DNA of 21,664 nucleotides from Gammaproteobacteria bacterium (lineage in GTDB: Bacteria > Pseudomonadota > Gammaproteobacteria > Xanthomonadales > Xanthomonadaceae), in contig JAPLSI010000029.1 of the NCBI GenBank assembly GCA_026398715.1, positions 1-21,664 of the forward strand. The letters run 5' to 3'. The translations under genes were made by a program, and so were the position numbers. Of the stretch, positions 4,324-18,308 are shown one piece after another; position 1 is the first letter of the stretch; each line of letters begins with the position of its first letter. Under the pieces are notes generated by a model, which did not search any database, was not told the DNA's origin, and saw nothing but the letters and a program-made list of their open reading frames with translations.

Positions 4324-5778
4324 ATGCCGAACCTTGAAGCCCGGAGCCCTGCGATCGATCCCGAAGCGGATCGGATCCGGGACCTGTGCTCCGCATTCCT
4401 GGCGCTGCAGGCGCAGGCGCGGTCCAACCAGGCGCTGCGCGACGAACTTGCCGCGATGAAGGCCAGCCACAGCTGGCGACTGACCGCACCGCTTCGGCAA
4501 TTGCGCCGTTGGCTGGGGCCGCGCCCGCCGACCCTGCAGCCATTGCAGCCCGCGGACGCGGCAGTGTTGCCCGGGCCGCTGGCCGATGCGTCCGAGTTGT
4601 TGCTTCGGCGAGTCGCGCCCGATGCCGCCGTCGCGCGGCCGGCACCGGGTCGGTCCCGGCAGTTGCTGGTGGACGTCACCGAGTTGGCATGCGAGGACCT
4701 GGGCGCCGGCGTGCAACGCGTCGTGCATCGCGTCCTCATCGAATTGCTGCTCGATCCGCCAGCGGGGTTTCGGGTCGAACCGGTTCGCCTCTCCGCCGAT
4801 GGACGCTACGTCCACGCACGCCAGTTCCTGGGCCGGCTACTCGGGCTGGAGGCGTGCGAGGTGGGGCTCGATCAACCGGTCAACGCCCGGCCGGGTGACC
4901 AGTATCTGGGGCTCGACCTGATCCGGGATCGTGCCGCCCTGGCCAGGCCTGCCTTGCTGTCGATGAAGGCCGGCCAGGTGTCCATGGCTTTCGTCGTGTT
5001 CGATGTGTTGCCCCTGCAACAGCCCGGCTGGTTCCCCGAGGGAATGGGCGAGCGCTTCCGCGAGTGGCTGCGCCTGGTCGCCGATTGCGGGGACAAGGCG
5101 CTGTGCATCTCCGAAACGGTCTGCCACGACCTGCGCAGCGCGTTGGCCGCGGAGGCGCCCGCGTCGAAGCTCACTGTGGCCAGCTTCACCCTGGGTTCCA
5201 ACCTCGATGGCTGGTTGCCGCCGGATGCGGGCCTGCCGGGGCCCCATGCGGGCGTCGCGCGGTTCCTGATGGTGGGCACGGTGGAGTTGCGCAAGGGCCA
5301 CGCGCAGGTGATCGATGCCTTCGAGACATTGTGGGCGCAAGGCGCGCCCTGCGAATTGCTGATAGCGGGCAACGCCGGCTGGCTGGTGCCGGGGCTCGCC
5401 GACCGGCTGCGCGGACATCGCGAAGCGGGAAAGCGCCTGCACTGGATAGAAGGCGGCGGCGACGCTTCACTGCTGGCCGCCTACCGCGACAGCACGGCCC
5501 TGCTCGCGCCTTCGTGGGGCGAGGGATTCGGCCTGCCGCTGGTGGAGGCGGCCGCGCATGGCCTGCCGATCCTTGCCCGCGACCTGCCGGTCTTTCGCGA
5601 AGTGGCGGGCAAGGGCGCGGACTATTTCACCGGCGCGTCCGGCGCCGAACTGGCCCTTGCGATCGACGACTGGATGCAGCGCTGGCGCGAAGGTCGCGTC
5701 GCCGATCCGCGCGCCGTCGTGCGGCCCACCTGGCGCGACAGCGCCGATGCCCTGAAAAGGCAATTGGCGAAGCCCTGA
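4324..5778 (+). CDS. GT4-family glycosyltransferase
   Basis: A 484-aa cytosolic GT-B fold glycosyltransferase, presumably using a nucleotide-sugar donor to build a surface polysaccharide. A short N-terminal helical segment carries SWRLTAPLR (50-58), also found in the FkbM protein downstream. A Pro/Ala linker leads to RQLLVDVTEL (from ~112) and the acceptor-side domain. The donor domain has MVGTVELRKGH and the retaining-GT4 E-x7-E motif EGFGLPLVE (Glu400, Glu408), then LARDLPVFREVAG. Residues from ~112 onward closely resemble the second half of the 930-aa protein at 9402. The start at 4324 has a GGAG (4315-4318). It precedes wzm by 116 bp, in which a separate promoter is plausible. The sugar transferred is unknown. 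Confidence 0.88.
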   Translation: MPNLEARSPAIDPEADRIRDLCSAFLALQAQARSNQALRDELAAMKASHSWRLTAPLRQLRRWLGPRPPTLQPLQPADAAVLPGPLADASELLLRRVAPDAAVARPAPGRSRQLLVDVTELACEDLGAGVQRVVHRVLIELLLDPPAGFRVEPVRLSADGRYVHARQFLGRLLGLEACEVGLDQPVNARPGDQYLGLDLIRDRAALARPALLSMKAGQVSMAFVVFDVLPLQQPGWFPEGMGERFREWLRLVADCGDKALCISETVCHDLRSALAAEAPASKLTVASFTLGSNLDGWLPPDAGLPGPHAGVARFLMVGTVELRKGHAQVIDAFETLWAQGAPCELLIAGNAGWLVPGLADRLRGHREAGKRLHWIEGGGDASLLAAYRDSTALLAPSWGEGFGLPLVEAAAHGLPILARDLPVFREVAGKGADYFTGASGAELALAIDDWMQRWREGRVADPRAVVRPTWRDSADALKRQLAKP

Positions 5779-5894: not shown

Positions 5895-6689
5895 GTGCTG
5901 GAGCTGTTCCGCGCATTGTGGCGTTACCGCTTTTTCATCGTGTCCTCGGTGCGCAACGACTTGCGTGCGCGCTTTGCCCGCAGCCACCTGGGCGCCGCGT
6001 GGATGGTGCTGCAGCCGCTGGCGCAGGTGGCCATCTTCAGCCTGGTCCTGTCGGAAGTCCTGGCCGCACGCCTGCCCGGCACCGCGAGCAAGAGCGCCTA
6101 CGCCATCTACCTGATGGCAGGCCTGCTTTCATGGTCCTTGTTCAGTGAAATCACCAGCCGCTGCCTGACCCTGTTCGTGGACAACGCCGGCCTGCTCAAG
6201 AAGATGGTGTTCCCGCGAATCTGCCTGCCGGTGATCGTGGTGGGCGCGGCGCTGTTGAACAACCTGCTGTTGTTCCTGGCCATGTTGCTGATATTTGCCT
6301 TGATGGGCCATGCGCCGTCGCTCGAACTGGCGTGGCTGCTGCCGCTGACGGGGCTGACCGTGGCCTTCTCGCTTGGGCTGGGCCTGATGATGGGCGTGTT
6401 GAATGTCTTCCTTCGCGATGTTGGCCAGGTGATGGCCATCGTGTTGCAGCTGTGGTTCTGGCTGACGCCCATCGTGTACATGCCCAACATCGTGCCGGGC
6501 GGTTTCCAGTCGTGGATCGCGCTCAATCCGATGACGCCGATCGTGCGCGCCTACCAGCAGGTGATCCTCTACGGCCAGTCGCCCGACGTGCTGGGCATGG
6601 CCTGGGTCGTCGGGCTGGCGGCGCTGTTGCTGGTGGTTGCGCTGCTGCTGTTCCGTCGCGCCTCGCCCGACATGGTGGACGTGCTGTGA
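5895..6689 (+). CDS. wzm: ABC-2 polysaccharide export permease (Wzm-type)
   Basis: A 264-aa inner-membrane channel subunit of an ABC transporter that exports undecaprenyl-linked polysaccharide. The N-terminal amphipathic stretch (LFRALWRYRFFIVSSVRNDLRARFARSHLGAAWMVLQP, split across residues ~4-41) is typical of Wzm/KpsM/TagG proteins. About six hydrophobic segments follow, with the characteristic FLRDVGQV and WLTPIVYMP near 170-200 and a LNPMTPIVRAYQ stretch. The start is GTG at 5895, with AAGG seven bases upstream. The stop overlaps the wzt GTG by 4 bp (GTGA), so translation is coupled to its ATPase partner. Confidence 0.93.
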   Translation: MLELFRALWRYRFFIVSSVRNDLRARFARSHLGAAWMVLQPLAQVAIFSLVLSEVLAARLPGTASKSAYAIYLMAGLLSWSLFSEITSRCLTLFVDNAGLLKKMVFPRICLPVIVVGAALLNNLLLFLAMLLIFALMGHAPSLELAWLLPLTGLTVAFSLGLGLMMGVLNVFLRDVGQVMAIVLQLWFWLTPIVYMPNIVPGGFQSWIALNPMTPIVRAYQQVILYGQSPDVLGMAWVVGLAALLLVVALLLFRRASPDMVDVL

Positions 6690-7912
6690 GCGACTACCTG
6701 CTAGATGTCGAAAACCTCGGCAAGGTCTACCGCAGCTACTCGGCGGAATGGAAACGCGTGTTGCATTGGCTGGGCCTGCCGATGCATTCCGCCAGCGAGC
6801 ATTGGGCGTTGCGGCATGTTTCCTTCCGGATCGAGCGCGGCGAGGCCATCGGCATCGTCGGACAGAATGGCGCAGGAAAGAGCACCCTTCTGAAACTGGT
6901 TACCGGTACGGCACGGGCTAACGAGGGCAAGGTCACATGCGTCGGCCGCATCTCGGCGATCCTGGAACTGGGCATGGGCTTCGGACCGGACCTCACCGGT
7001 CGCGAGAATTGTCGCCATGCCGCCGGCCTGATGGGTCATTCCGAAGAACAGATTTCGCGCATGCTGCCCGAGATCGAGGCGTTTGCCGAAATCGGGGATT
7101 ACTTCGACCAGCCGGTTCGCACCTATTCAAGCGGCATGCAGATGCGCGTTGCCTTCGGCGTCGCCACGGCAGTGCGCCCCGACATCCTGATCGTGGATGA
7201 AGCGCTGGCGGTCGGCGATACCTACTTCCAGCACAAGAGCTTCGATCGCATCCGCAAGTTTCGCGAGCAGGGCACGACGCTGTTGATCGTGTCGCACGAC
7301 CGTTCCGCCGTGCAGCAGTTGTGCGACCGCGCGATCCTGCTCGACCAGGGCCGCCTGATCAAGGACGGCGGCGTCGAGGAAGTGATGGACTATTACAACG
7401 CGCTGATCGCGGAGCGCGAGAACCAGACCGTCACCGTCACGCGGCTCGAAGACGGCCGCGTGCAGACCGTGTCCGGCACGGGCGAGGCCAGCGTCGAGAC
7501 GGTCGGGCTGTACGACGCGCGGGGCGAGCCCGTGGAGTTCGTGAATGTCGGCCAGCCGGTCGAATTGCGCATCCGCGCGCGCGTGCACCGCGCCGTGCCC
7601 AGGCTGGTGCTGGGCTACATCATCCGCGACCGCCTGGGCCAGGCGATCTATGGCACCAATACCCATTACACCCGCCAGGCGCTGGAAGACGTGCCGGCAG
7701 GCGCCGTGGTGGATTACGTGATCCGTTTCCCGATGAATATCGGCGCAGGGACCTACTCTGTTTCCACTGCGCTGGTCAGCACCGAAACCCATCTGGAAAA
7801 CAACTACGAATGGCGTGACCTCGCGCTGTTGTTCACGGTGGCCAACCTGGACAAGCCATTTTTCGTGGGCACCGCCTGGGTCGAACCCAGCATCGAGCTG
7901 ACCGTGTCATGA
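6686..7912 (+). CDS. wzt: ABC polysaccharide export ATPase with C-terminal glycan-binding domain (Wzt-type)
   Basis: A 408-aa ATPase partner of Wzm. The nucleotide-binding domain has Walker A GQNGAGKST (59-67), the signature YSSGMQMR (147-154), Walker B ILIVDE (Asp171/Glu172) and switch His204 in IVSHD. After ~250 residues a beta-rich extension (~260-408) matches Wzt_C carbohydrate-binding domains, with ELRIRARVHRAVPRLVLGY and ending in AWVEPSIELTVS. In E. coli O8/O9a this domain binds the capped non-reducing end of the chain. The frame is open far upstream, but I chose GTG at 6686 because homology to Wzt starts there (SDYLLDVENLGKVY) and it overlaps the wzm stop. The stop overlaps the next ATG by 4 bp. 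Confidence 0.92.
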   Translation: MSDYLLDVENLGKVYRSYSAEWKRVLHWLGLPMHSASEHWALRHVSFRIERGEAIGIVGQNGAGKSTLLKLVTGTARANEGKVTCVGRISAILELGMGFGPDLTGRENCRHAAGLMGHSEEQISRMLPEIEAFAEIGDYFDQPVRTYSSGMQMRVAFGVATAVRPDILIVDEALAVGDTYFQHKSFDRIRKFREQGTTLLIVSHDRSAVQQLCDRAILLDQGRLIKDGGVEEVMDYYNALIAERENQTVTVTRLEDGRVQTVSGTGEASVETVGLYDARGEPVEFVNVGQPVELRIRARVHRAVPRLVLGYIIRDRLGQAIYGTNTHYTRQALEDVPAGAVVDYVIRFPMNIGAGTYSVSTALVSTETHLENNYEWRDLALLFTVANLDKPFFVGTAWVEPSIELTVS

Positions 7913-9402
7913 GCTTCGTCTCGTACGCCCAAAACTACGAAGACGTGATCCTGATGCGCGCGTTGCGCGGCGTGGCAGAGGGATTCTACATAGACGTGGG
8001 TGCCCAGCATCCGCGCAACGATTCGGTGACGAAGGCCTTCTACGACCTGGGCTGGCATGGAATCAACATCGAGCCCGTGGCGCATTGGCATCGCATGCTG
8101 GTCGAGCAACGGCCGCGCGACATCAACCTGTGCGTGGCGGCCGGGGCCGGGGAAGGAACGATCGATCTGTTCGAAGTCCAGGACAGCGGCTTGTCCACGA
8201 CCAGCGCCGAGTTCGCACGCCGACACCGCGATGCCGGGCTGCCGGTGCAGCCACCGCGCAGGGTGCCCGTGCGTCGCCTCGACACGATCTGCATCGAGCA
8301 TGGCGTGTCGCAGGTGCACTTCCTCAAGGTCGATGCCGAGGGCGCCGAGGCCGACGTGCTGGGCGGAATCGACTGGCGGGCTATCCGCCCGTGGGTGGTG
8401 CTGGTGGAGGCGACCGAGCCCAATTCGCGGACCAGCAACCACGCCGAGTGGGAGTCCCTGCTGACCGGGCACGATTATGACTTCGTCTACCAGGACGGAC
8501 TGAATCGGTTCTACCTGGCGCGGGAACACGCCGACCTGGCGCCCGCGTTCGCGGCACCGCCGAACGTGTTCGACGCCTTCGTGCGACGCGACCAGGTGGA
8601 CGAAGCAAACCGGTTGCTGGAACTCCTGCGTGAGTCCGACAGCTTGCTCAAGGACCGGGCCCGTCACATCGAGGAACTTGCCGGCCGTATCGGAGAACGC
8701 GATGCGCAGGTCGCAATCTTCCTCGAGGCCCATCGCCGGGACGTCGGCCAAATCGAAGCGCTTCATGCCGACCTGGTCCGCATGGCCGAAACGCATCGCC
8801 AGTCCAGCGAAGCCATGCAGGCCGAAATCGAGGCGCGCGAGCAACGCATCGTCGGCCTCGAGGCGGCGGGTGTCGCGCTGCGCGAACAGTTGCAGGGGAT
8901 GGGCCGCAGCCTCGAGCAGCGCGACCTTGCGAACGCGCGCCTGTCGCGCGACCTGATGGCTTCGCAGGCCGACCAGTTGGCATCCGAAGCGGCGAGGATG
9001 GCAACCCACGCAGTACGCCTGGCGGCCGAGGCGGAGACGGCCCAGGTTCGTCGCGCGCTGGACGCCGAACGCCAGGAATATGCGCGCGTGATGGCCAGCC
9101 GATCGTGGCGATTGACGGCGCCGCTTCGCGTCGTTGCCACCTCGATGCGCGAAACCGTCAACGCCCTCGAATCCGGGTCGCGCGCGCTCGCGCGGTTGCG
9201 CCCCGTACGCACCCTGGTGGCCGCGTTGCTGTCGCCTTTCCCCGGCTTGGCCCGGCGCGTGAAGCGGCGCCTGTACGGCGAGCCGACGCCGCTGCTGGCC
9301 GCCATGGAGGGCGCCGAGCCCGCGCCCTTGCCCCTGACCGAGGACGCTGAAGAAATCCTCGCACGATCGCCCGTTCCCCCGGTTGCCGGGCCACGCCGCT
9401 GA
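7909..9402 (+). CDS. FkbM-family methyltransferase with long C-terminal coiled coil
   Basis: A 497-aa protein. Residues 1-~230 are an FkbM-type SAM methyltransferase: MSFVSYAQNYEDVILMRAL, the SAM-binding FYIDVGAQHP (from ~26) and LKVDAEGAEADVLGG (Asp142). FkbM enzymes usually O-methylate sugars or natural products. Residues ~234-396 are strongly helical and heptad-like, rich in Ala, Glu, Arg and Gln with almost no Pro or Gly, so a coiled coil is likely. SWRLTAPLR (399-407) and a basic, partly hydrophobic tail follow. Placement directly after wzt (ATGA overlap) and before the tandem glycosyltransferase (TGATG overlap) suggests it modifies the exported glycan. A chain-capping and length-ruling role like WbdD is my inference; there is no kinase domain. 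Confidence 0.85.
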   Translation: MSFVSYAQNYEDVILMRALRGVAEGFYIDVGAQHPRNDSVTKAFYDLGWHGINIEPVAHWHRMLVEQRPRDINLCVAAGAGEGTIDLFEVQDSGLSTTSAEFARRHRDAGLPVQPPRRVPVRRLDTICIEHGVSQVHFLKVDAEGAEADVLGGIDWRAIRPWVVLVEATEPNSRTSNHAEWESLLTGHDYDFVYQDGLNRFYLAREHADLAPAFAAPPNVFDAFVRRDQVDEANRLLELLRESDSLLKDRARHIEELAGRIGERDAQVAIFLEAHRRDVGQIEALHADLVRMAETHRQSSEAMQAEIEAREQRIVGLEAAGVALREQLQGMGRSLEQRDLANARLSRDLMASQADQLASEAARMATHAVRLAAEAETAQVRRALDAERQEYARVMASRSWRLTAPLRVVATSMRETVNALESGSRALARLRPVRTLVAALLSPFPGLARRVKRRLYGEPTPLLAAMEGAEPAPLPLTEDAEEILARSPVPPVAGPRR

Positions 9403-12194
9403 TGCGAATCGTCCTGGACCTGCAGGCCTGCCAGGGACACGGCAACCGCGTGCGCGGGATTGGTCGCTATACCCGCTTGCTGGCGCAGTCCATGCTGCGG
9501 GAATCGCGCGGCCACGAATTCTGGATCGTGCTCAACGGTGGCATGCCCGAAGCGATCGACGAGATCCGCGGCGACTTCGACGGATTGCTGCCGCAGGACC
9601 GCATCGTGCTTTGGGACAACCCGTTCCCGGCGGCCGAGCTTCATCAGGTCGATCCCTGGCCTTGCCGGGTGGCGGAGGTGTTGCGCGAAGATTTCCTGGC
9701 GGCGCTGCAGCCCGATGTCATCCACGTGGCGTCGTTGTTCGAAGGCTGGAACGATCCTTCCGCGGCGTCCATCGGCCGCGGCAGCCTGCGCAAGGCGCCG
9801 ACTGCCGTGACGCTGTATGACCTGATCCCGCTGGCGATGCGCGAGGTCTACCTGAAGGACGGCCCGACCCGGCGCGCCTACCTGGGCAAGCTGGAGGACT
9901 TGCGGCGCGCCGACCTGTGCCTTGCGATTTCCGAGTTCACGCGTCGCCAAGCCGTTGAACTGCTCGGCATCGACGCCGGCAGCGTCGTCAACATTTCCGG
10001 TTCGGTGGATCCGGTTTTCCATCGCTTGCCTGTCGATCCGCGCAGGGCGGCGAGCATCGCTTCGCGCCACGGCCTGTGGCGGTCGTTCGTCATGTACACC
10101 GGTGGTTTCGACCACCGCAAGAATGTCGATGGACTGATTCGCGCCTATGCCGGTTTACCGGCGGACGTCCGCGCCAGCCGACAGTTGCTGATCGTCGGCA
10201 AGCCGCCCGGCGACGCGCATGGTGAACTGGCCGGCGTTGCGCATGAGGCGGGGCTGGCCGCCGACGAAGTGTGTTTTGCCGGTTACGTTTCCGATCCCGA
10301 CCTGGTCGCGTTGTACAACGCGTGCGAGCTGTATGTCTTTCCCTCGCTGATGGAAGGCTTCGGATTGCCCGCGCTCGAGGCCATGGCCTGCGGCGCGCCG
10401 GTCATCGGCGCCGACGCCAGCAGCTTGCCTGAGGTGATCGGCTATCCCGAGGCGATGTTCGAGGCAGGCTCCGACGAGGCGATGCGCGAGCGCATGTTGC
10501 AGGGCCTGGTGGACCCGGCATTCCGGACCCGCCTGCTCGAGCATTCCAGTGAAAGGTTCCGTCTGTTTTCGTGGGAAGCGACGGCGCGCACTGCACTGGA
10601 TGCACTGGAGGCGCTGGCCGTATCCGGTTCTACAACGACCGGGCAGGGGCCAGGCGAGGATCGCTGGCAAATGCTGGCGCGTCAGGCCGAGCGTTTGTCG
10701 GACCTGGCCCCTTGGGAAAACCTTCCGGACAATGCGCGACGTCGGCTCGCCGCCGCGCGCTCCGAGAACTTGCCGGTACCCAGGCCCCGGCAGTTGCTGG
10801 TGGATGTGTCCAACCTGAGCGGACACGACGCCGGCACCGGAATCCAGCGCGTGGTGCGAAACGTGCTGCGCGAGTTGTATCGCGCCGACACGCGTGGCCT
10901 GGACGTGGTGCCGGTGCGTTTCGACAGCGCGGGCCAACCCCGGCAGGCGCGGGAGTTTGCAGCGCGCTTTGCCGGCGGACAGCCCGATGGGGCGGACGAT
11001 CCACTGCTCGATGCGCGCCCGGGGGACATCTTCCTGGGCCTGGACCTTTCGGCGCACATCGTGCCCTGGTACTACGAGAGTTTCGACCGGATGCGGCGTC
11101 GCGGCGTCGCCATGCATTTCGTCGTTTACGACCTGATCCCGCTGCTCCGCCCCGATTGCATGGACCCGGCGGGCGTGCCGACGCTGCAGGCATGGTATCG
11201 GTCGATCGGGCAACTGGCCGATGGCCTGTGCTGCATTTCCCGCGCGGTTGCCGACGACCTGGCCAAATGGTGCGACCAGGCGCAGCCGGTACGGCATCGG
11301 CCCTTGAAGATCGGTCATTTCCACCTTGGCAGCGAACTCGACCCGGTGGCTGTCGAAGCCGATGCCGAGGCGGATCCGCAGTTCGACGCGATCACGACGG
11401 GTCGATGTTTCCTCATGGTCGGCACGATCGAACCGCGCAATGGCCACGGCCAGGCGCTGGATGCCTTCGAGCTGCTCTGGCAGGACGGCGTCGATGCCAG
11501 CCTGGCGATCGTCGGCAAGCCGGGCTGGTTGATGGAAGATTTGACCGCCCGACTGAAGCAACATCCCGAAGCAGGCCGCCGCCTGCACTGGTTCACCGAC
11601 ATCGACGACCGCGGACTTCGAGCGCTGTATGCCGGCAGCGTGGCGTTGATCGCGGCATCGGAAGCGGAAGGCTTCGGCCTGCCCATCGTCGAGGCGGCGG
11701 GCCATGGATTGCCGGTGATTGCGCGCGACCTGCCGGTGTTTCGCGAAGTGGCCGGCGAACATGCATTTTATTTTTCGGGCTTCGGCGCCGGCGAGCTGGC
11801 CGATGCCTTGCGCGCCTGGCTCGACCTTGCCGGCCGTGGGCTTGCGCCCGCATCACGCTCGATGCCTCGCCTGGACTGGAAGGGCAGCGCCGATGCACTC
11901 ATCCGGTGCGTCATCGACGGCGAGCACGATGTCTGTTGGCGTCCCTCGGGCAAGCGCCTGTTTCCGGCCACCGACCCGCGCCTGCTCCGGCAGGTGGGAC
12001 GCCTGTATCGGCAGCAGCTGCTGACCGATGAACGCAGCGGGTTCCTCACTTACGGTCCCTATGCGAATTTCGCAGCAGGCAGTTATCGGCTGCGCGCCCT
12101 CGGCAACTGGACGACGGATGCCGGCCCTGGCATCTGGATGGATGTCGTGTCCGACCAGGGCAGCTACCGCCTGGCGTCGACCTGCAGCTGTTGA
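9402..12194 (+). CDS. Tandem GT4-GT4 glycosyltransferase with C-terminal module, tail frameshifted
   Basis: A 930-aa protein with two complete GT-B/GT4 units. The first (1-~410) starts MRIVLDLQACQG with GIGRYTRLLAQSM and has E-x7-E motif EGFGLPALE (Glu318, Glu326). The second (~465-830) starts RQLLVDVSNLSG and has EGFGLPIVE (Glu756, Glu764). The second is paralogous to the 484-aa glycosyltransferase at 4324. From ~853 a third module begins (LFPATDPR, GFLTYGPY) that is also found at the end of the GT-C protein at 12363. The frame stops at 12192-12194 (SYRLASTCSC), while a clear continuation lies one frame away to 12307, so the tail is broken or misread. Two GT4 units in one protein recall WbdA, which makes two linkages of a repeat unit. 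The ATG overlaps the previous stop by one base. Confidence 0.88.
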   Translation: MRIVLDLQACQGHGNRVRGIGRYTRLLAQSMLRESRGHEFWIVLNGGMPEAIDEIRGDFDGLLPQDRIVLWDNPFPAAELHQVDPWPCRVAEVLREDFLAALQPDVIHVASLFEGWNDPSAASIGRGSLRKAPTAVTLYDLIPLAMREVYLKDGPTRRAYLGKLEDLRRADLCLAISEFTRRQAVELLGIDAGSVVNISGSVDPVFHRLPVDPRRAASIASRHGLWRSFVMYTGGFDHRKNVDGLIRAYAGLPADVRASRQLLIVGKPPGDAHGELAGVAHEAGLAADEVCFAGYVSDPDLVALYNACELYVFPSLMEGFGLPALEAMACGAPVIGADASSLPEVIGYPEAMFEAGSDEAMRERMLQGLVDPAFRTRLLEHSSERFRLFSWEATARTALDALEALAVSGSTTTGQGPGEDRWQMLARQAERLSDLAPWENLPDNARRRLAAARSENLPVPRPRQLLVDVSNLSGHDAGTGIQRVVRNVLRELYRADTRGLDVVPVRFDSAGQPRQAREFAARFAGGQPDGADDPLLDARPGDIFLGLDLSAHIVPWYYESFDRMRRRGVAMHFVVYDLIPLLRPDCMDPAGVPTLQAWYRSIGQLADGLCCISRAVADDLAKWCDQAQPVRHRPLKIGHFHLGSELDPVAVEADAEADPQFDAITTGRCFLMVGTIEPRNGHGQALDAFELLWQDGVDASLAIVGKPGWLMEDLTARLKQHPEAGRRLHWFTDIDDRGLRALYAGSVALIAASEAEGFGLPIVEAAGHGLPVIARDLPVFREVAGEHAFYFSGFGAGELADALRAWLDLAGRGLAPASRSMPRLDWKGSADALIRCVIDGEHDVCWRPSGKRLFPATDPRLLRQVGRLYRQQLLTDERSGFLTYGPYANFAAGSYRLRALGNWTTDAGPGIWMDVVSDQGSYRLASTCSC

Positions 12195-12307
12195 AGGACG
12201 TTGCCGACCTCGAGATCCGCCTGTGGGTATCGGCTGAAACCTGCTTGGCCCTGGATGGTTTCGAACTCGACATCCGGCGCGACGCCGGCCGCGATCAGGA
12301 CGACTAG
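12182..12307 (+). other. Out-of-frame continuation of the tandem glycosyltransferase tail
   Basis: Translated one frame back from the preceding gene, this stretch reads LQLLKDVADLEIRLWVSAET and then CLALDGFELDIRRDAGRDQDD, ending at TAG (12305-12307). It aligns with the last residues of the GT-C protein (IDDLEIRIAVDEGSRLEVSRFELERVR). It therefore looks like the real end of the shared C-terminal module rather than a separate gene. The join would make a protein of ~967 aa. Compared with the GT-C copy, about 15-20 residues are also missing at the break. Confidence 0.7.
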
Positions 12308-12362
12308 CGCAGCGGCCGGTCCGTTGCCATGTCCTATACTTCGCGAAACCGACCAGGGAAGC

Positions 12363-14816
12363 ATGCCAGTGCCCGCGTTGCCACCGGTGCCCGATCCAAC
12401 CGCGCGCGGATCGAACCTGTCCCAGGACGGAATGCTGGAGCGCCTCGTGGTGTTCCTGCTGTCGGCCAGCTTCGCCGGCGTCGCGCTTGCGGTCGCCGGT
12501 TTCTTCCTGGCGCCACTGGTGCTGGCGATCGCCGGATCGTGCACCTGGGCCTATCACGTGCTCGTGCCCGACACGCAATCGCAGGCGCCGACCGGGTCAC
12601 GCCTGCCGTACATCGTTCCCATCCTGCTGGTCGCCCTGTGTTTCAGGCTTGCGCCCTTCGACTACGTGATTGGCGGGCAGGACCAGGGCCTGTACACCAA
12701 CATCGCCGCCGAGCTCGTGCGCACGCACGACATCGCCGTGGTCGATCCGGAAATCCAGCGGCTCGCGGGTAGCACGGCCCTGGCCAATTATCGGCACGAC
12801 AACTACATCGATCCCTTCCTGCCCGGCGTGTACACCAGCACCGATGGGAAGGATGAGCTCACTTTCCAGTTCTACCACCTGTTCCCGGTCTGGCTGGCCT
12901 TGTTCGCGGGGCTGTTCGGCGCCTCCGCCGCGACCTACGGCCTGACATTCCTGTCGCTTGTTTCGATCATCTTCTTCCACAGGCTGGCGACGCAGTTGAC
13001 GGGAAATCCCCGACTGGGCGCGATCGCCGGCCTGTTGCTGGCGCTCAATCCGTTGCACGCGTTCTTCTCCCGGTTCCCGGTCACCGAAATTCCGACGCTG
13101 GCGTTTTCCCTGATCGGATTCACCCTGGTAGCCGTGTACTCCGGCTCGCGCCCGGAAGAACGCCGCGTGCGCTGGCTATGGCTTTCGGCCCTGTCCTTCG
13201 GCTGCCTGTTCCTGACCCGGATTTCGGGCTTCATGTACCTGCCGATCGTGTTCGCGTTGGGCACCATTCCCCTGGTGCTCGATGAAGACCGCGAACGGGC
13301 ACTGGGCCTGGCCCGATGGGCGCGGGCGACTGTCGCGCTGTACCTGGCGTCGGTGGCTTATGGACTGGTCTGGTCGCGTCCCTATTCCCTGACCATCTAC
13401 GATGACTCGTTCTCGCGGCTCGGTGGCCGCGACTGGCCGACGATCATGGCGGCGCTATTGGTGTTCGCCGCGCTGGTCTGGTCCAGCGCCTGGCTGCGTC
13501 CGGGCGGGTCGGTAGGCCGGATGCTGGCGTGGGGCGCATCGCGGCTTTCCCGCTGGATGGGCCTGGCGTTGCTGCTGGTGTTGGCCGCAGGCTGCTATCG
13601 GGTACATGACTTCGCCTTCAGCGACGCCTACGCGGGCGTCAGTCCTTTCAGCATGTTTCCCGGCACGGCCGGGCAGGGTTGGCCGAGCGTTGCCTACTCG
13701 AGCCTGGTGGCGGCGGCGATGTACCTGTGCCCGCTGCTGTTCGTGGCCTACCTTTGGCTGGCCCAGTTGCGCTGGAATGCGATCGGCAGCTTCTTCGTGT
13801 TCTTCGTGTTGTGCGTGACCGCGTATGTGGCGGTGCTCAACTGGTACATGCCCTACCAGCCGTATTACGGCCGCTACCTGGTCAGCGAACTGCTTCCCTA
13901 CTGCCTGCTGTTCGTGGTGTGCGGACTGGGATGGATCACCCACCCGGCCGGGCGCAGGTTGTTGTCGGCCTCGCTCGCGGTGGCGGGCCTGTACTTCTTC
14001 GTCCTGTCCGCCGGGCAAGTGGGCAAACTGGAGAACGAGTTCGCCCGCGACTCCATCGCCCGCCTCGCCAACGTGGCCGACGACGGCGACCTGATCTTGC
14101 TCGATGACGCCGGCAGCGAGAAATTCTCGCCGCGCGAAGTCAAGACCACGCTGGTCTATACCTTCCACCGCCACGTGGTCAGCATCAATCGCGATCGCTG
14201 GCTCGACGTGGGCTACCTGGACGGCCTGGACGCGGCCTACGACGATGTCTACCTCGTCACGCAGTCCACGGACGTGCCGTCCGGATTCGAACGCGTGGAT
14301 GCGTTGCGAATGCGCGCCATCGGCTTCGTTCGTTCCGCAGGTCCGCCGTGGCGAACGGCGCCGACGCTGGATGCAAACCTGCTGGTCTATCGACTGGCCC
14401 GTCCGGCCTACGGCATCGGAAGCCGCCAGGTCTTCATGCCGGCCACCGACCCACGCTTCCACACGCAGCAGGGGCTGATGGACGCCGGGCGGGGAGTGAT
14501 GGCCCAGGGCCGCGCAGGCTTCCTTGTGTTCGGGCCCTATGTCGCGTTGCCGCGCGGCCATTTCCAGGTTCGTATCTGGGGTCGCCAGCCGGCAACCGAT
14601 GCGGGCGAGGCCCGGCTGGAGGTCGCGTCGGCGAAAGGCACCCAGGTCATGGCCGCATCGAGTGCGCGCGCGACGTCCGCGGCCACGCCGTCAGTGATGG
14701 GAACACTCGAATTCGAGGTTCCCGACGCGGGTATCGACGATCTCGAGATCAGGATCGCCGTGGATGAAGGATCACGGCTCGAGGTGTCGCGATTCGAGTT
14801 GGAGCGGGTGCGCTAG
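12363..14816 (+). CDS. GT-C/GT39-like polytopic membrane glycosyltransferase with shared C-terminal module
   Basis: An 817-aa inner-membrane protein with roughly 13 hydrophobic segments up to ~residue 560. After the first helices comes FDYVIGGQDQGLYTNIAAEL with an acidic residue (Asp107). This is the position of the catalytic Asp in the first periplasmic loop of GT-C enzymes that use polyprenyl-phosphate sugars. FPVTEIPTLAF also fits GT39-like proteins. A soluble domain (~575-690) and a final module (~690-817, FMPATDPR, GFLVFGPYVALPRGHF, LEIRIAV, FELERVR) follow. The last module is shared with the tandem glycosyltransferase upstream. I chose ATG 12363 (AGGGA just upstream); ATG 12432 (AGGACGGA upstream) is an alternative, and the longer open frame from 12201 overlaps the previous gene's tail. 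The function is inferred from topology. Confidence 0.75.
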   Translation: MPVPALPPVPDPTARGSNLSQDGMLERLVVFLLSASFAGVALAVAGFFLAPLVLAIAGSCTWAYHVLVPDTQSQAPTGSRLPYIVPILLVALCFRLAPFDYVIGGQDQGLYTNIAAELVRTHDIAVVDPEIQRLAGSTALANYRHDNYIDPFLPGVYTSTDGKDELTFQFYHLFPVWLALFAGLFGASAATYGLTFLSLVSIIFFHRLATQLTGNPRLGAIAGLLLALNPLHAFFSRFPVTEIPTLAFSLIGFTLVAVYSGSRPEERRVRWLWLSALSFGCLFLTRISGFMYLPIVFALGTIPLVLDEDRERALGLARWARATVALYLASVAYGLVWSRPYSLTIYDDSFSRLGGRDWPTIMAALLVFAALVWSSAWLRPGGSVGRMLAWGASRLSRWMGLALLLVLAAGCYRVHDFAFSDAYAGVSPFSMFPGTAGQGWPSVAYSSLVAAAMYLCPLLFVAYLWLAQLRWNAIGSFFVFFVLCVTAYVAVLNWYMPYQPYYGRYLVSELLPYCLLFVVCGLGWITHPAGRRLLSASLAVAGLYFFVLSAGQVGKLENEFARDSIARLANVADDGDLILLDDAGSEKFSPREVKTTLVYTFHRHVVSINRDRWLDVGYLDGLDAAYDDVYLVTQSTDVPSGFERVDALRMRAIGFVRSAGPPWRTAPTLDANLLVYRLARPAYGIGSRQVFMPATDPRFHTQQGLMDAGRGVMAQGRAGFLVFGPYVALPRGHFQVRIWGRQPATDAGEARLEVASAKGTQVMAASSARATSAATPSVMGTLEFEVPDAGIDDLEIRIAVDEGSRLEVSRFELERVR

Positions 14817-14835: not shown

Positions 14836-16137
14836 TCAGAAACGGTTGACCGTTTCCTTGTAGCGGATGATGTCGCCCAGCGAATGACCGCTGCCGCTCT
14901 GGCAATGGATCTTGTAGGAGCGGACCGCGCCGGTGTTCTGTTCGTTGGATTCGACTTCGATGGTGTAACGCGAGTTCGATCCGCCGTTGCGATCGTTCTT
15001 GTCGCCCATGTAGGTCTCGCTCCAGCCGGTCGAGCCGTCGCCGCCGGACACCACCAGGCCGTCCTGGTCGAGCAGGCGCATTTCAAGGCCATGGTTGGGC
15101 AGCGCGCGCAGGCCGTTGCCCGGGTTGATCAGTTCGCACTGCTGGTAGTCGGGGTGGCGGAAGTAGATGACGTGCGTGTTGCCGCTGGCGCCCGTGCCGA
15201 TTTCAAAATTGCGACCGACGCCGTCTGCGCTGACCAGCGTCTCGCGCGACACATGGTTGTCCTGCGAGCCGATGACGTCGCCCGGATAGCCCAGGCCGCC
15301 CGCACCCACTTCCTGCTTCGCGATGCGGAAGTCGGCGCCGAAGGTGGTGCTTTCCTGGGTCGTGCACAGGCTCATCAAGCCGGGCTCTTCGTTGGCGTTG
15401 TTTTCCTCGAAGCGTACCGATGCGTCGTTGTAGTCCCCGAGTGCGGCCCCGCCCGTGGCGAACACGTCGAGCAGACGCAGGGTCTGGCCCGGCGCGAGCA
15501 CGACGTCGCCTCCGCCGATGACCGCGGAGCTGCTGTTGTAGAGCGTGTAGTGGATCGATGTTGCCGTGCCGCCGGCACTTTCCTCGTTGAGGTTGGCCAG
15601 GAAGCAGTTGGTCTGGAAGGACGGCGAGCTGGGGGTGGCGGCCAGGCGACGGATGCCGTTGATGAAGCTGTCGGCGGAGGTGAAGGTGCTGGCGGGGAAG
15701 GATTCGACCGTGAAGCCGTTGCCCTGCGGATTGCTCACGCGCGAGAAGCCTGCGTAGGGCAGGTTGCTGGCGAGGTTGCGCTCGCTGGTGTACAGGAATC
15801 CGAACTGGCTGCCGGCTGCAAGCGAGGGGCAGACCGTGCGCAGGCTGGTGAACGTGACCGTCTTGCCCGGGGCGATGTCGAAGGTCGGGCAATTGATGAG
15901 GTTCGGCGCCTGCGACGTACCGGTGGCCGGGTAGTACTTCGGCGTTACCGTGACGGCGCTGAGCAGGTTGGGGTTGTGGAAGCTGAACCGCTGCGAGAAC
16001 GAGGCGGTGTCCACGACGACCGGGAATATCTGGATGGAGTGATAGGCATCGGTCGACTGCGCCTGGGCTGCAGTCGCTGCCAGGCCCAGGCCGACGGCGC
16101 AAGCTGCGGCAAGTTGAATCTGTTTGATGCGGTTCAC
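14836..16137 (-). CDS. Secreted six-cysteine protein of unknown function, paralog 1
   Basis: A 433-aa protein I do not recognise. A Sec signal peptide is clear (MNRIKQIQLAAACAVGLGLA, predicted cut AQA|QS after residue 26). The mature part is rich in Ser, Thr, Gly and aromatic residues, likely all beta, and has exactly six cysteines (in NCP, VCP, NCF, LCT, QCE and HCQ contexts), which suggests three disulfides in the periplasm or outside. It is collinear with the protein at 16339: both begin QSTD(A/G)(Y/F)H(S/A)IQ(I/V)FPVVVD and both contain FRHPDY, LEMRL, YMGDK.DRN and HCQSGSGH.LGDI. GGAG lies seven bases before the ATG. It is preceded by a terminator (16270-16293), so it probably has its own promoter. 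Confidence 0.85.
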   Translation of the reverse strand: MNRIKQIQLAAACAVGLGLAATAAQAQSTDAYHSIQIFPVVVDTASFSQRFSFHNPNLLSAVTVTPKYYPATGTSQAPNLINCPTFDIAPGKTVTFTSLRTVCPSLAAGSQFGFLYTSERNLASNLPYAGFSRVSNPQGNGFTVESFPASTFTSADSFINGIRRLAATPSSPSFQTNCFLANLNEESAGGTATSIHYTLYNSSSAVIGGGDVVLAPGQTLRLLDVFATGGAALGDYNDASVRFEENNANEEPGLMSLCTTQESTTFGADFRIAKQEVGAGGLGYPGDVIGSQDNHVSRETLVSADGVGRNFEIGTGASGNTHVIYFRHPDYQQCELINPGNGLRALPNHGLEMRLLDQDGLVVSGGDGSTGWSETYMGDKNDRNGGSNSRYTIEVESNEQNTGAVRSYKIHCQSGSGHSLGDIIRYKETVNRF

Positions 16138-16338: not shown

Positions 16339-17649
16339 TCAGAACTGGACAGCCGAGTTGAACTTCACGATGTCGCCCAGGGTATGGCCGCTGCCGCTCT
16401 GGCAATGGAGCTTGTAGGGGCGCGCGGCGGCCGTATTGACCGCAGTGCTTTCCACCTCGATCGTGTAACGGGCATTGGCGCCGTTGTTGCGATCGGTCTT
16501 GTCACCCATGTAGATGCGCGAGAAGCCCTGGATGTTGACGCCGCCAGCCAGGGTGTTCAGGTACTGGTCGCGCAGGCGCATCTCGAGGCCATAGGCGGGC
16601 AAGGCACGGACGTTGGTGGCCGGGTCGATGATCTCGCACGCCACGTAGTCGGGATGGCGGAAATAGACGACGTGCGTATTGGCGCCGGTGGTCGTGTTCG
16701 ATGCGGGGATCGAGAACGCACGCGGCGTCGTGTCGCCGGTCATCTTGATGTCGAAGGCGACGGTGGTGTCGCGGCTGACGTGGTCGTCCTGCGCACCGAT
16801 TCCCGAATACTGGGTGCCGTAGCCGCGGAACTGCTTGCCGATGCGGAAGTCGGCGCCGAAGCTGGTGTTGTCCTGCACGGTGCAGAAGGTCATCAGGCCC
16901 GGCTCGCCGGTGCCCGTTTCACCGAACACGATGTAGGCATCGTCGTAGTCGCCGGCCGGCGCATTGGCCGCAGCGAACACGTCGAGCAGGCGAACCATGC
17001 GGCCGGGGGTCAGCTGCATCGTACCCGTGCCCAGCGTCGCGCCGCCGCTGCTGTACAGCGTGTAGTTGACGGTGCTGTTGAGGTGCAGGTACGGCGACAC
17101 GTCATGCTGGTTGCCGACGAAACAGTTGGTCTGGAAGGCAGGCGAGGCGCCGCTGGCGGCGCGGCGGCGCAAGCCGGTGACGATGGTGTCTGCCGAAGTG
17201 AAGGTATGGGCCGGGAAGGCTTCCACGCTGAAGCCGTTGCCGGCCGCGTTGCTTACCCGCGAATAGCCCGAGAACAGGCCCTGCGTCGCGCCGGTGACGG
17301 CGGCATACAGAAATCCGTACTGGCTACCGGCCGCGAGCGTCGGGCAGATGCCGCGCAGGCTGGTGAAAACCGTCTGGCCGCCGGCCGGAATGGTGATGGC
17401 GGGGCAGCCCATGTTGACGGCCTGGGTGGTGCCGTCGGCGGGGAAGTAGATGGTCGAGAGCGTGACGGCATTGGCTGCGTCAGGGTTCTTGAAGGTGAAG
17501 CGCTGGGTGAAGGAGTCGGAATCGACCACTACCGGGAAAACCTGGATGGCGTGGAATCCGTCAGTGGATTGGGCGAGGGCGGGCGTGGTGCCGGCCAAGG
17601 CCAGCAGGCCGAAGCCGGAGGCGAGGGCAAAATGCTTCAACGAGAACAC
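16339..17649 (-). CDS. Secreted six-cysteine protein of unknown function, paralog 2
   Basis: A 436-aa paralog of the protein at 14836, of unknown function. I start it at GTG 17649 because AAGGAG lies six bases upstream. That start also gives a normal Sec signal peptide (MFSLKHFALASGFGLLALAG, cut ALA|QS after residue 26), the same length as in the paralog. A longer frame from ATG 17676 has no good ribosome-binding site. The mature part again has six cysteines in equivalent places (GCP, ICP, NCF, FCT, ACE, HCQ) and the same terminal block HCQSGSGHTLGDIVKF. No enzyme motif, lipobox, repeat or C-terminal sorting tail is seen. A strong terminator follows. Confidence 0.85.
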   Translation of the reverse strand: MFSLKHFALASGFGLLALAGTTPALAQSTDGFHAIQVFPVVVDSDSFTQRFTFKNPDAANAVTLSTIYFPADGTTQAVNMGCPAITIPAGGQTVFTSLRGICPTLAAGSQYGFLYAAVTGATQGLFSGYSRVSNAAGNGFSVEAFPAHTFTSADTIVTGLRRRAASGASPAFQTNCFVGNQHDVSPYLHLNSTVNYTLYSSGGATLGTGTMQLTPGRMVRLLDVFAAANAPAGDYDDAYIVFGETGTGEPGLMTFCTVQDNTSFGADFRIGKQFRGYGTQYSGIGAQDDHVSRDTTVAFDIKMTGDTTPRAFSIPASNTTTGANTHVVYFRHPDYVACEIIDPATNVRALPAYGLEMRLRDQYLNTLAGGVNIQGFSRIYMGDKTDRNNGANARYTIEVESTAVNTAAARPYKLHCQSGSGHTLGDIVKFNSAVQF

Positions 17650-17655
17650 GGACAG

Positions 17656-17661
17656 CTCCTT
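17656..17661 (-). promoter_or_regulatory. Ribosome-binding site deciding a GTG start
   Basis: AAGGAG on the minus strand, six bases (CTGTCC) before GTG 17649. It lies inside the longer open frame that starts at ATG 17676, and it argues for the downstream start. Confidence 0.75.
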
Positions 17662-17734
17662 GGGTGGCGCTCGCATCGGTTGCTGCCGCTCATTCGGCAG
17701 GGCACCCGGGCGAGGATGACTCATATGGTGGCAT

Positions 17735-17748
17735 AAACACCGGTGTTT
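17735..17748. promoter_or_regulatory. 14 bp perfect palindrome, possible operator
   Basis: AAACACCGGTGTTT is a perfect 14 bp palindrome in the 107 bp gap between the small membrane protein gene and secreted paralog 2, ~86 bp upstream of the chosen GTG. With no loop it is a poor terminator and better resembles a dimeric regulator site. No regulator gene is nearby. Confidence 0.3.
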
Positions 17749-17756
17749 CGGCGGGT

Positions 17757-18308
17757 TCAGCGGCGGCTTCGTTCCGACTTGGCTTCCGCTTCCCGCAGTC
17801 GCGCAAGCTCTTCCGGACTCAGGGCAGTGCCCTTGGTGGCGGGAACGACGGCCGGGCCGCCTTCGGCCCACATGTCCACCACCGCATAGGTGCCGGGGCT
17901 GTTGGGCACGACGGTAAGCTCGCCCGCCTTGATCGGCTTGACCACGCCCTGGGCGTCCTTGGCGTATCCGATCACCTCCTGGGGCGCAGCCTTGATCGGG
18001 ATGGGCTTGGCCGGCGGAAGCGGTTCAGTCGACAGGGGCAGTCCGGCGTCATTCAGGATGCGCGCACCGTTGGCGTCCACTTCGATGCCTTCACCCGCGT
18101 ACCGGCGGCCGTCGGGCGAGGTTTGCGGACGCGTCGCGCCCGCCGTGCCCGGGCCAGCCGCGGCGTCGAGGCCCGTGTCTTGGGGCTCGCCATTGCTACC
18201 GGCGCCCTTCGGCCAGAAAAAATAGGTCGCCGATGCGGCAGCGAGCAGCAGGAGCAGGATGGGCAGCAGCTGGCGGCGAGGTTGGGCGGGGGCGGGGGTT
18301 GCAGGCAT
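17757..18308 (-). CDS. Single-span membrane-anchored protein of unknown function
   Basis: A 183-aa protein I cannot assign. A short Pro/Ala-rich cytosolic start with Arg11-Arg12 precedes one hydrophobic helix (LLPILLLLLAAASATYFFW, 14-32), so the remaining ~150 residues are expected in the periplasm. They are low in complexity up to ~70, then carry GRRYAGEGIEVDANGARI, EVIGYAKDAQGVVKPI and TYAVVDMWAEGG. The charged C-terminus (SPEELARLREAEAKSERSRR) looks helical. No cysteine or enzyme motif is seen. It is 107 bp upstream of secreted paralog 2 on the same strand and divergent from the methyltransferase gene, but a shared function is not demonstrable. Confidence 0.7.
   Translation of the reverse strand: MPATPAPAQPRRQLLPILLLLLAAASATYFFWPKGAGSNGEPQDTGLDAAAGPGTAGATRPQTSPDGRRYAGEGIEVDANGARILNDAGLPLSTEPLPPAKPIPIKAAPQEVIGYAKDAQGVVKPIKAGELTVVPNSPGTYAVVDMWAEGGPAVVPATKGTALSPEELARLREAEAKSERSRR

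What the first reader, a model, noticed from the sequence alone, without database searches (positions are those of the whole stretch)
5895..12307. wzm-wzt-methyltransferase/coiled coil-tandem GT4: an O9a-like capping and length-control locus built with an FkbM enzyme
Gene order and architecture parallel E. coli O8/O9a: wzm, wzt with a C-terminal glycan-binding domain, WbdD (methyltransferase plus coiled-coil ruler) and WbdA (two GT4 domains). Here the third gene is an FkbM methyltransferase followed by ~160 residues of predicted coiled coil and a basic tail, with no kinase domain. All these genes overlap by 1-4 bp. I infer a non-homologous counterpart of WbdD in which FkbM methylation ends the chain, the coiled coil sets its length and the Wzt extension reads the methyl cap. 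The architecture is seen, the O9a comparison is known biology, and the capping role is inference.
Basis: partly seen in the sequence, partly recalled or inferred. Interest (0 to 1): 0.7.

Follow-up and report, generated by a model that had tools for sequence, protein, structure and literature searches.

The report
Methyl-capping ruler for surface sugar chains
A bacterial gene set seems to build surface sugar chains, stop them at a set length by adding a methyl group with an unusual enzyme on a long helical spacer, and export only the capped chains; the head enzyme is unexpected in this role, the rest matches a known E. coli design.

Summary
In detail: window 5895-12194 encodes Wzm, Wzt with a sugar-binding domain (CBD), an FkbM methyltransferase plus long helix, and a tandem-GT4 polymerase, overlapping by 1-4 bp. 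Best reading: an O8-type chain-terminating system in which FkbM methylates the chain end, the coiled coil spaces it from the polymerase, and Wzt reads the methyl. Evidence: among 44 testable relatives, 22 of 28 with the coil-exit module have a CBD-type wzt just upstream, against 4 of 16 without; FkbM-coil-GT4 fusions exist; coils of close relatives differ by heptads (10 of 22 non-zero differences). Wzt keeps the methyl-stacking Trp of the solved Aquifex transporter. Over 119 surveyed wzt loci one rule gives Trp with 36 of 42 methyltransferase partners (17 of 17 bearing the module) and Arg with 21 of 21 sulfotransferase or kinase-type partners; E. coli O8 Wzt has Trp, O9a Arg. Capping and ruler activity are untested.

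The parts
4324..5778 (+). GT4 glycosyltransferase with an N-terminal SHSWRLTAPLR (residues 48-58), the same motif that ends the FkbM coil; 43% identical over 381 aa to the second GT4 domain of the polymerase
   Evidence: Pfam; motif; blastp
5895..6689 (+). wzm, ABC transporter permease
   Evidence: PF01061
6686..7912 (+). wzt, ATPase plus carbohydrate-binding domain (Wzt_C at about 7466-7879)
   Evidence: PF00005 + PF14524; best solved match A. aeolicus 8dku_A E 1.6e-74
7811..7813 (+). Wzt Trp377 (numbered from base 6683), aligned with A. aeolicus Trp362 that stacks on the 3-O-methyl; pocket partners Ile313, Ser361, Ala363
   Evidence: alignments; residue roles from passages of PMC9445017
7909..9402 (+). 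FkbM methyltransferase - coiled coil - exit module, proposed chain terminator and ruler
7993..8484 (+). FkbM (Methyltransf_21) domain, residues 29-192; class I methyltransferase-like fold
   Evidence: Foldseek (no match at E<=0.001; the best-ranked hits are SAM-dependent methyltransferases)
8587..9096 (+). coiled-coil region, residues 227-396, helix interrupted with low confidence at 318-333
   Evidence: AlphaFold2; heptad-step length changes
9097..9129 (+). SRSWRLTAPLR coil-exit motif (residues 397-407)
   Evidence: HMM match to E. coli WbdD
9130..9399 (+). C-terminal helices of the exit module, proposed membrane/polymerase docking region (inferred)
   Evidence: helices; position matches the coil-GT boundary of fused relatives
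9402..12194 (+). WbdA-like polymerase, tandem GT4; C-terminal domain changes frame near 12176 (second frame runs to 12307)
   Evidence: 36% over 840 aa to O9 WbdA, E 1.8e-171; frame change

Best explanation
This is a chain-terminating, length-controlled ABC-transporter glycan locus of the E. coli O8 kind with its methyltransferase head replaced. The tandem-GT4 WbdA-like enzyme lengthens a lipid-linked glycan at the membrane. The FkbM protein docks there through its SRSWRLTAPLR exit module and holds its FkbM domain away on a coiled coil; only a chain long enough to reach the domain gets an O-methyl on its non-reducing end, which stops growth. Wzt then takes the methylated end in a hydrophobic pocket that includes Trp377, and Wzm/Wzt exports the chain. 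Shown: gene order, domains, shared exit module, Wzt pocket residues, register-preserving coil variation. Inferred: methyl transfer to the terminal sugar, docking, and ruler action.
For: Linkage: of 51 genome loci, 44 testable; with the exit module 22 of 28 have a CBD-type wzt ending within 1.3 kb upstream, without it 4 of 16 (Fisher p 0.001). A wzt/fkbM ATGA overlap is kept in 22 of 26 close pairs. Fusions: L020, L024 and L038 carry FkbM and GT4 domains in one frame. Shared module: HMM from 99 FkbM tails hits O8 WbdD 5.8e-11 and O9 WbdD 2.2e-6. Polymerase: 36% over 840 aa to O9 WbdA. Ruler: among disjoint pairs with methyltransferase identity >=0.8, 10 of 22 non-zero coil differences are multiples of 7 (p 4e-4), 0 of 9 tail differences are; in the six closest proteins insertions include tandem 7- and 14-residue units. 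Methyl reading: Ile/Ser/Ala/Trp pocket matching A. aeolicus Leu300/Thr346/Ala348/Trp362; Trp in 28 of the 29 FkbM-query loci whose Wzt has the domain; module-bearing methyltransferase partners go with Trp in 17 of 17; O8 Trp, O9a Arg.
Against: Six of 28 module-bearing FkbM relatives have no CBD-type wzt just upstream (L006, L009, L021, L026, L032, L040). L018, 1,148 bp from its wzt, has Tyr instead of Trp. Six of 42 methyltransferase-partnered Wzts lack Trp, one of them beside an FkbM gene (L185, Phe); in the hold-out with Pfam calls added 6 of 17 lack it, three beside weak FkbM matches (L232-L234, Leu). A. aeolicus Tyr233, which contacts the glycan, aligns with Asn here, as it does in O8 Wzt. 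AlphaFold2 interrupts the coil at 318-333. Oligomer state, sugar and methyl position are unknown. The window's own genome is not held, so a second capping enzyme elsewhere cannot be excluded.
Confidence: 0.75

Rival explanations
1. FkbM caps the chain, but the coil is only a tether or oligomerisation rod; length is set by the balance of polymerase and terminator, not by coil length.
For: AlphaFold2 interrupts the helix at 318-333 with low confidence; hydrophobic periodicity alone is modest (49 of 1000 shuffles); coil lengths range widely, 95-369 residues between anchors.
Against: The coil is the part that varies most: the methyltransferase anchor lies at 215 with MAD 0, the tail has MAD 11, the coil MAD 28.5, and among close relatives coil changes tend to keep register. 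In O9a and K. pneumoniae O12 the same architecture is an established ruler (passages of PMC11231755).
Confidence: 0.2
2. FkbM decorates internal sugars of the repeat; another enzyme caps or the system exports uncapped chains.
For: FkbM enzymes methylate many substrates (recalled); no glycan structure is available; module-bearing FkbM proteins without a CBD-type wzt nearby exist.
Against: The transporter of the uncapped K. pneumoniae O1/O2 chains lacks the CBM (passages of PMC11231755), whereas this Wzt has one with the methyl pocket. The exit module shared with WbdD and the slot between wzt and wbdA match terminators.
Confidence: 0.12
3. The FkbM protein acts on another product (capsule, glycoprotein, S-layer) and its position is coincidental.
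For: Six module-bearing relatives lie away from a CBD-type wzt.
Against: Conserved position and 4-bp overlap across distant loci and fusions with GT4 domains.
Confidence: 0.03

Closest known systems
E. coli O8 locus (Wzm, Wzt, methyltransferase-only WbdD, WbdA); strain IAI1, L194
   Same: Gene order and overlapping genes; Wzt with Trp pocket; methyltransferase head, then a region ending in SRSWRITQPLR; polymerase homologous over both GT4 domains
   Different: The O8 WbdD head shows no significant similarity to FkbM (blastp: only residues 300-318, the motif, at E 0.001; others E above 1); O8 protein 425 aa against 497
E. coli O9a WbdD/WbdA/Wzt; strain HS, L193
   Same: Coil and exit motif SRSWRMT; WbdA homology over 840 aa
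   Different: O9a head has a methyltransferase and a kinase giving methyl-phosphate (PMC3482155, passages); its Wzt has Arg in place of Trp
Aquifex aeolicus Wzm/Wzt (8dku, 7k2t, CBD 6o14/8dky)
   Same: Closest solved Wzt; methyl-pocket residues and His355, Arg304, Val380 equivalents kept
   Different: Tyr233 aligns with Asn. Its glycan is known to end in 3-O-Me-Man/Rha (PMC9445017, passages); its terminating enzyme was not examined here
K. pneumoniae O7 ORF6 and O12 WbbB
   Same: Terminator - coil - polymerase logic fused in one protein, like the FkbM fusions L020/L024/L038
   Different: Heads are a methyltransferase-kinase and a Kdo transferase (PMC11231755, passages); FkbM occurs 0 times in that paper's main text

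Membership tests
WbdD-type chain terminator | Encoded between wzt-CBD and the WbdA polymerase | tested here: met
WbdD-type chain terminator | Catalytic head homologous to WbdD (class I methyltransferase with or without kinase) | tested here: not met
   Only FkbM PF05050 found; blastp with O8/O9 WbdD is significant only over the coil/motif region. Distant common descent of methyltransferase folds is not excluded
WbdD-type chain terminator | Long coiled coil after the head | tested here: met
   Helices 227-317 and 334-396; heptad-step variation; possible interruption noted
WbdD-type chain terminator | C-terminal membrane/polymerase docking region | tested here: inconclusive
   Sequence module shared with O8/O9 WbdD; docking itself not tested
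WbdD-type chain terminator | Trimer (reported for an O9a fragment, PMC3482155, passages) | not testable with these tools
   Only single chains can be modelled
WbdD-type chain terminator | Adds a cap that stops growth and permits export | not testable with these tools
   Needs enzyme assay and glycan analysis
FkbM methyltransferases (PF05050) | Match above Pfam's curated score | tested here: met
   94 bits against 22.7
Methyl-cap-reading Wzt | Wzt_C domain | tested here: met
   129 bits against 30.4
Methyl-cap-reading Wzt | Hydrophobic methyl pocket with Trp362 equivalent | tested here: met
   I313/S361/A363/W377
Methyl-cap-reading Wzt | Binds methylated ends only | not testable with these tools
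   Needs binding assay
WbdA polymerase | Tandem GT4 domains, homology to O8/O9 WbdA over both | tested here: met
   36% over 840 aa to O9, 33% over 803 columns to O8

The most novel reading that the evidence does not exclude
The FkbM protein is one member of a large set of head-swapped terminators: a common coil plus SxSWRxTxPLR exit module carries FkbM, several unrelated methyltransferases, methyltransferase-kinases or sulfotransferases, each next to a Wzt whose single pocket residue tracks the cap chemistry, Trp for methyl and Arg for charged caps. It follows that many bacteria should make O antigens ending in sulfate, a cap of which my searches showed no report, and that the cap type of a ruler-controlled, ABC-exported glycan can be read from one Wzt residue.
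Probability: 0.45. Interest if true: 0.75.

Novelty: new variant of a known kind. Interest (0 to 1): 0.6.

Why it matters
It suggests that the length-control and quality-control logic known from a few E. coli and Klebsiella serotypes is modular: the ruler and its docking end stay while the capping enzyme is exchanged, and the transporter's pocket changes with it. If right, cap chemistry and relative chain length of many uncharacterised glycans become predictable from sequence, and natural coil variants differing by whole heptads offer a ready series for testing the ruler model.

Tried and rejected
Searching residues 365-440 alone as a protein query gave only 5 hits, too insensitive; replaced by an HMM of the exit module. 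PDB sequence search with the FkbM protein found nothing at E<=1; Foldseek found no match at E<=0.001. PDB search with L166 gave methyltransferases only among its listed hits, no kinase; L131, L166 and L167 (methyltransferase plus unassigned domain) are related to each other over about 500 aa, and L131 and L166 show a D-x-x-P-[FH]-N ... D-L-E signature, which suggests an O7-like kinase but does not prove it. O9a as the model was rejected in favour of O8 because of the Wzt residue. A terminal-methyl precedent with the WbeT enzyme was looked at (listing, passages); I recall WbeT being FkbM-like but no call shows it, so it is not used. first read Tyr233 as conserved because I had guessed its column; searches put Asn there, and the claim is dropped.

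Correction made on re-checking: my hand-made partner table gave Trp with 29 of 29 methyltransferase partners and Arg with 13 of 13, but I had left six loci with methyltransferase HMM hits (L180, L185, L186, L188, L189, L191) among the unclassified. One uniform HMM rule (score >=60 in a same-strand ORF starting from 900 bases before to 1,500 after the wzt end) gives 28 of 34 in the two survey sets and 8 of 8 in the hold-out set. The six misses read His, Phe and, in that alignment, four Arg (Thr, Thr, Met, Thr in the alignment, so the column is uncertain there).

Literature searches: FkbM+Wzt+coiled-coil+chain length 0 papers; FkbM+O-antigen+coiled-coil 0; FkbM+O-antigen+methyltransferase+ABC transporter 2 (listing only, neither on this subject by title and start of abstract); six exit-motif strings 0; sulfotransferase+Wzt+O-antigen+terminal 3 (one read in passages); pocket terms 2, unrelated by title. 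Subscription papers are mostly not held.

Rows dropped: heptad test used 80 of the 120 listed proteins (40 lacked an anchor). Linkage used 44 of 51 loci; the seven left out as too short or truncated are L004, L025, L050 (wzt adjacent) and L024, L029, L035, L045 (none seen). Survey: 40 fetched loci from the order search (3 without a Wzt by my HMM) and 40 from the phylum and order searches; weaker PF14524 hits were mostly not fetched. Unclassified: 27 of 77 survey Wzts (11 Trp, 7 Arg, 9 others) and 29 of 42 hold-out Wzts (9 Trp, 14 Arg, 6 others). L174, with two methyltransferase domains by Pfam, has Arg and counts against the rule though the HMMs do not classify it. The O7-like class was defined from L131, L166 and L167 after their Arg had been seen; only L222 and L224 are independent of that.

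Full report
What is there. The window (21,664 bp) holds a tRNA-Gly, then a glycan cluster on the + strand. Pfam gives a GT4 enzyme (4324-5778), Wzm (5895-6689), Wzt with a Wzt_C domain (to 7912), FkbM (7909-9402) and a tandem GT4 protein (9402-12194). There is no kinase domain in the FkbM protein. AlphaFold2 on a 71-sequence alignment gives a confident methyltransferase followed by long helices (227-317, 334-396) with a low-confidence interruption between, then shorter helices.

Is it more than chance? A protein search found 3,191 relatives among the 7,993 candidates it scored (120 listed) and a genome scan 51 loci. The order wzm-wzt-FkbM-polymerase recurs in Gammaproteobacteria, Betaproteobacteria, Syntrophobacteraceae and cyanobacteria. 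Of 44 testable loci, those whose FkbM ORF carries the coil-exit module have a CBD-type wzt ending within 1.3 kb upstream in 22 of 28 cases, the others in 4 of 16. The wzt/fkbM ATGA overlap is kept in 22 of 26 close pairs. In L020, L024 and L038 the FkbM domain, the motif and GT4 domains are in one reading frame, so the window's two proteins look like the split form of a fusion.

The coil. Between fixed anchors the methyltransferase length hardly varies (median 215, MAD 0) while the coil runs from 95 to 369 residues (80 of 120 proteins with both anchors). Among disjoint pairs of relatives with at least 80% identical methyltransferases, 10 of 22 non-zero coil differences are multiples of seven (3.1 expected, p 4e-4; 6 of 13 at 90%, 12 of 26 at 70%, 12 of 31 at 60%). 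Differences of 0, 3 or 4 modulo 7, which fit heptads plus stutters, make 19 of 22, a class chosen after seeing the data. Tail differences show none (0 of 9). Random pairing gives a fraction of 0.18. In the six closest proteins insertions include tandem copies of 7- or 14-residue units. Coil length thus changes quickly but often in register, as a ruler under selection would; this does not prove that the ruler acts.

The shared exit module. Of the 120 listed relatives 99 have SxSWRxT after residue 230. E. coli WbdD O8 (L194) and O9 (L193) carry SRSWRITQPLR and SRSWRMT towards their C-terminal ends, and an HMM of the 99 FkbM tails finds them at 5.8e-11 and 2.2e-6 in a set of 11,177 sequences. In fused proteins next to other wzt genes the motif lies between the N-terminal head and the GT domains. 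[quoted passage not shown] I infer the same role here. The window polymerase is a WbdA homologue (36% over 840 aa to O9 WbdA). So the locus is WbdD-like in exit module and polymerase, and differs in the catalytic head. The same module also occurs in other cluster enzymes, such as the GT4 at 4324-5778.

What Wzt reads. The closest solved Wzt is that of Aquifex aeolicus (E 1.6e-74), whose CBD binds 3-O-methyl-mannose but not mannose, the methyl sitting among Leu300, Thr346, Ala348 and Trp362 (PMC9445017, passages). The window has Ile, Ser, Ala and Trp there and keeps Arg304, His355 and Val380 equivalents; Tyr233 aligns with Asn. To learn whether Trp is informative I surveyed wzt-CBD loci not chosen for FkbM (PF14524; 151 genomes of one order and 299 of the phylum), and later 240 and 274 further genomes of two classes. 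Under one uniform HMM rule for the neighbouring gene: order set, methyltransferase partners 20 of 20 Trp and charged-cap partners 11 of 11 Arg; second set 8 of 14 and 5 of 5; hold-out set 8 of 8 and 5 of 5. Together Trp in 36 of 42 and Arg in 21 of 21. When the methyltransferase protein also carries the exit module, Trp is seen in 17 of 17; without it in 19 of 25. This split was made afterwards, but the module is what marks a ruler-borne head. On my earlier hand-made table, which left out six misses (see Tried and rejected), clustering Wzt at 60% identity left 16 Trp and 8 Arg, at 50% 5 and 5; kinship is only partly removed by this. Known cases fit: A. aeolicus Trp, E. coli O8 Trp, E. coli O9a Arg (2r5o); the partner of L140, whose Wzt has Arg, matches WbdD 4ax8 at 1.2e-45.

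Hold-out with Pfam. For the 42 hold-out loci I fixed predictions from HMM and Pfam classes and then read the residue: Arg predicted 6, seen 6; Trp predicted 17, seen 11. The six misses are Leu (L232-L234, weak FkbM matches), Phe (L228), His (L236) and Arg (L237); in all six the methyltransferase is a short separate protein (272 to 361 aa), which may not be the terminator, an explanation made afterwards. One ambiguous locus (L229) had Arg; 18 were without a prediction. The rule is strong for ruler-borne heads and weaker for stand-alone methyltransferases.

Conclusion. Best read as an O8-like capping and length-control locus with an FkbM head. That a ruler-borne FkbM cap enzyme is not described rests on the searches listed under Tried and rejected; subscription papers are mostly not held. 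The survey also points to sulfotransferase-headed proteins with Arg-type Wzt, hence to sulfate-capped glycans; in Aeromonas salmonicida a sulfotransferase-domain ORF next to wzt was noted with no such residue found in the glycan (PMC4483657, passages), which neither supports nor excludes a single terminal sulfate.

Noticed in passing
L132, L133, L142-L146, L165, L169 (next to wzt); window not involved: Sulfotransferase-headed proteins directly after wzt with a CBD, several of them fused to GT domains and with the exit motif; Wzt has Arg at the methyl-stacking position. Suggests sulfate-capped O antigens.
   Followed up: partly
window 12176-12307: The C-terminal domain of the WbdA-like protein changes frame compared with L049 (about 17 residues unmatched), so the ORF stops at 12194 while a matching second frame runs to 12307; natural or an assembly fault.
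   Followed up: partly
window 9402-12194 C-terminus and 12201-14816 C-terminus: The polymerase and the next large ORF (871 aa, no Pfam match at 0.001) share a C-terminal domain (31% over 140 columns, E 5e-7).
   Followed up: partly
window 4324-5778: GT4 enzyme with the coil-exit motif at its N-terminus, so the motif is also used by other enzymes of the cluster, perhaps to join the same complex.
   Followed up: partly
window 14836-16137 and 16339-17871, minus strand: Two tandem paralogues, 53% identical over 433 columns, the first without a Pfam match (the second was not scanned); function unknown.
   Followed up: no
L111, L112, L115, L116, L120: Proteins after wzt with the order reversed: a DUF4214-like start and, at the C-terminus, a methyltransferase domain that by eye resembles O8 WbdD's; Wzt has Trp.
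   Followed up: partly
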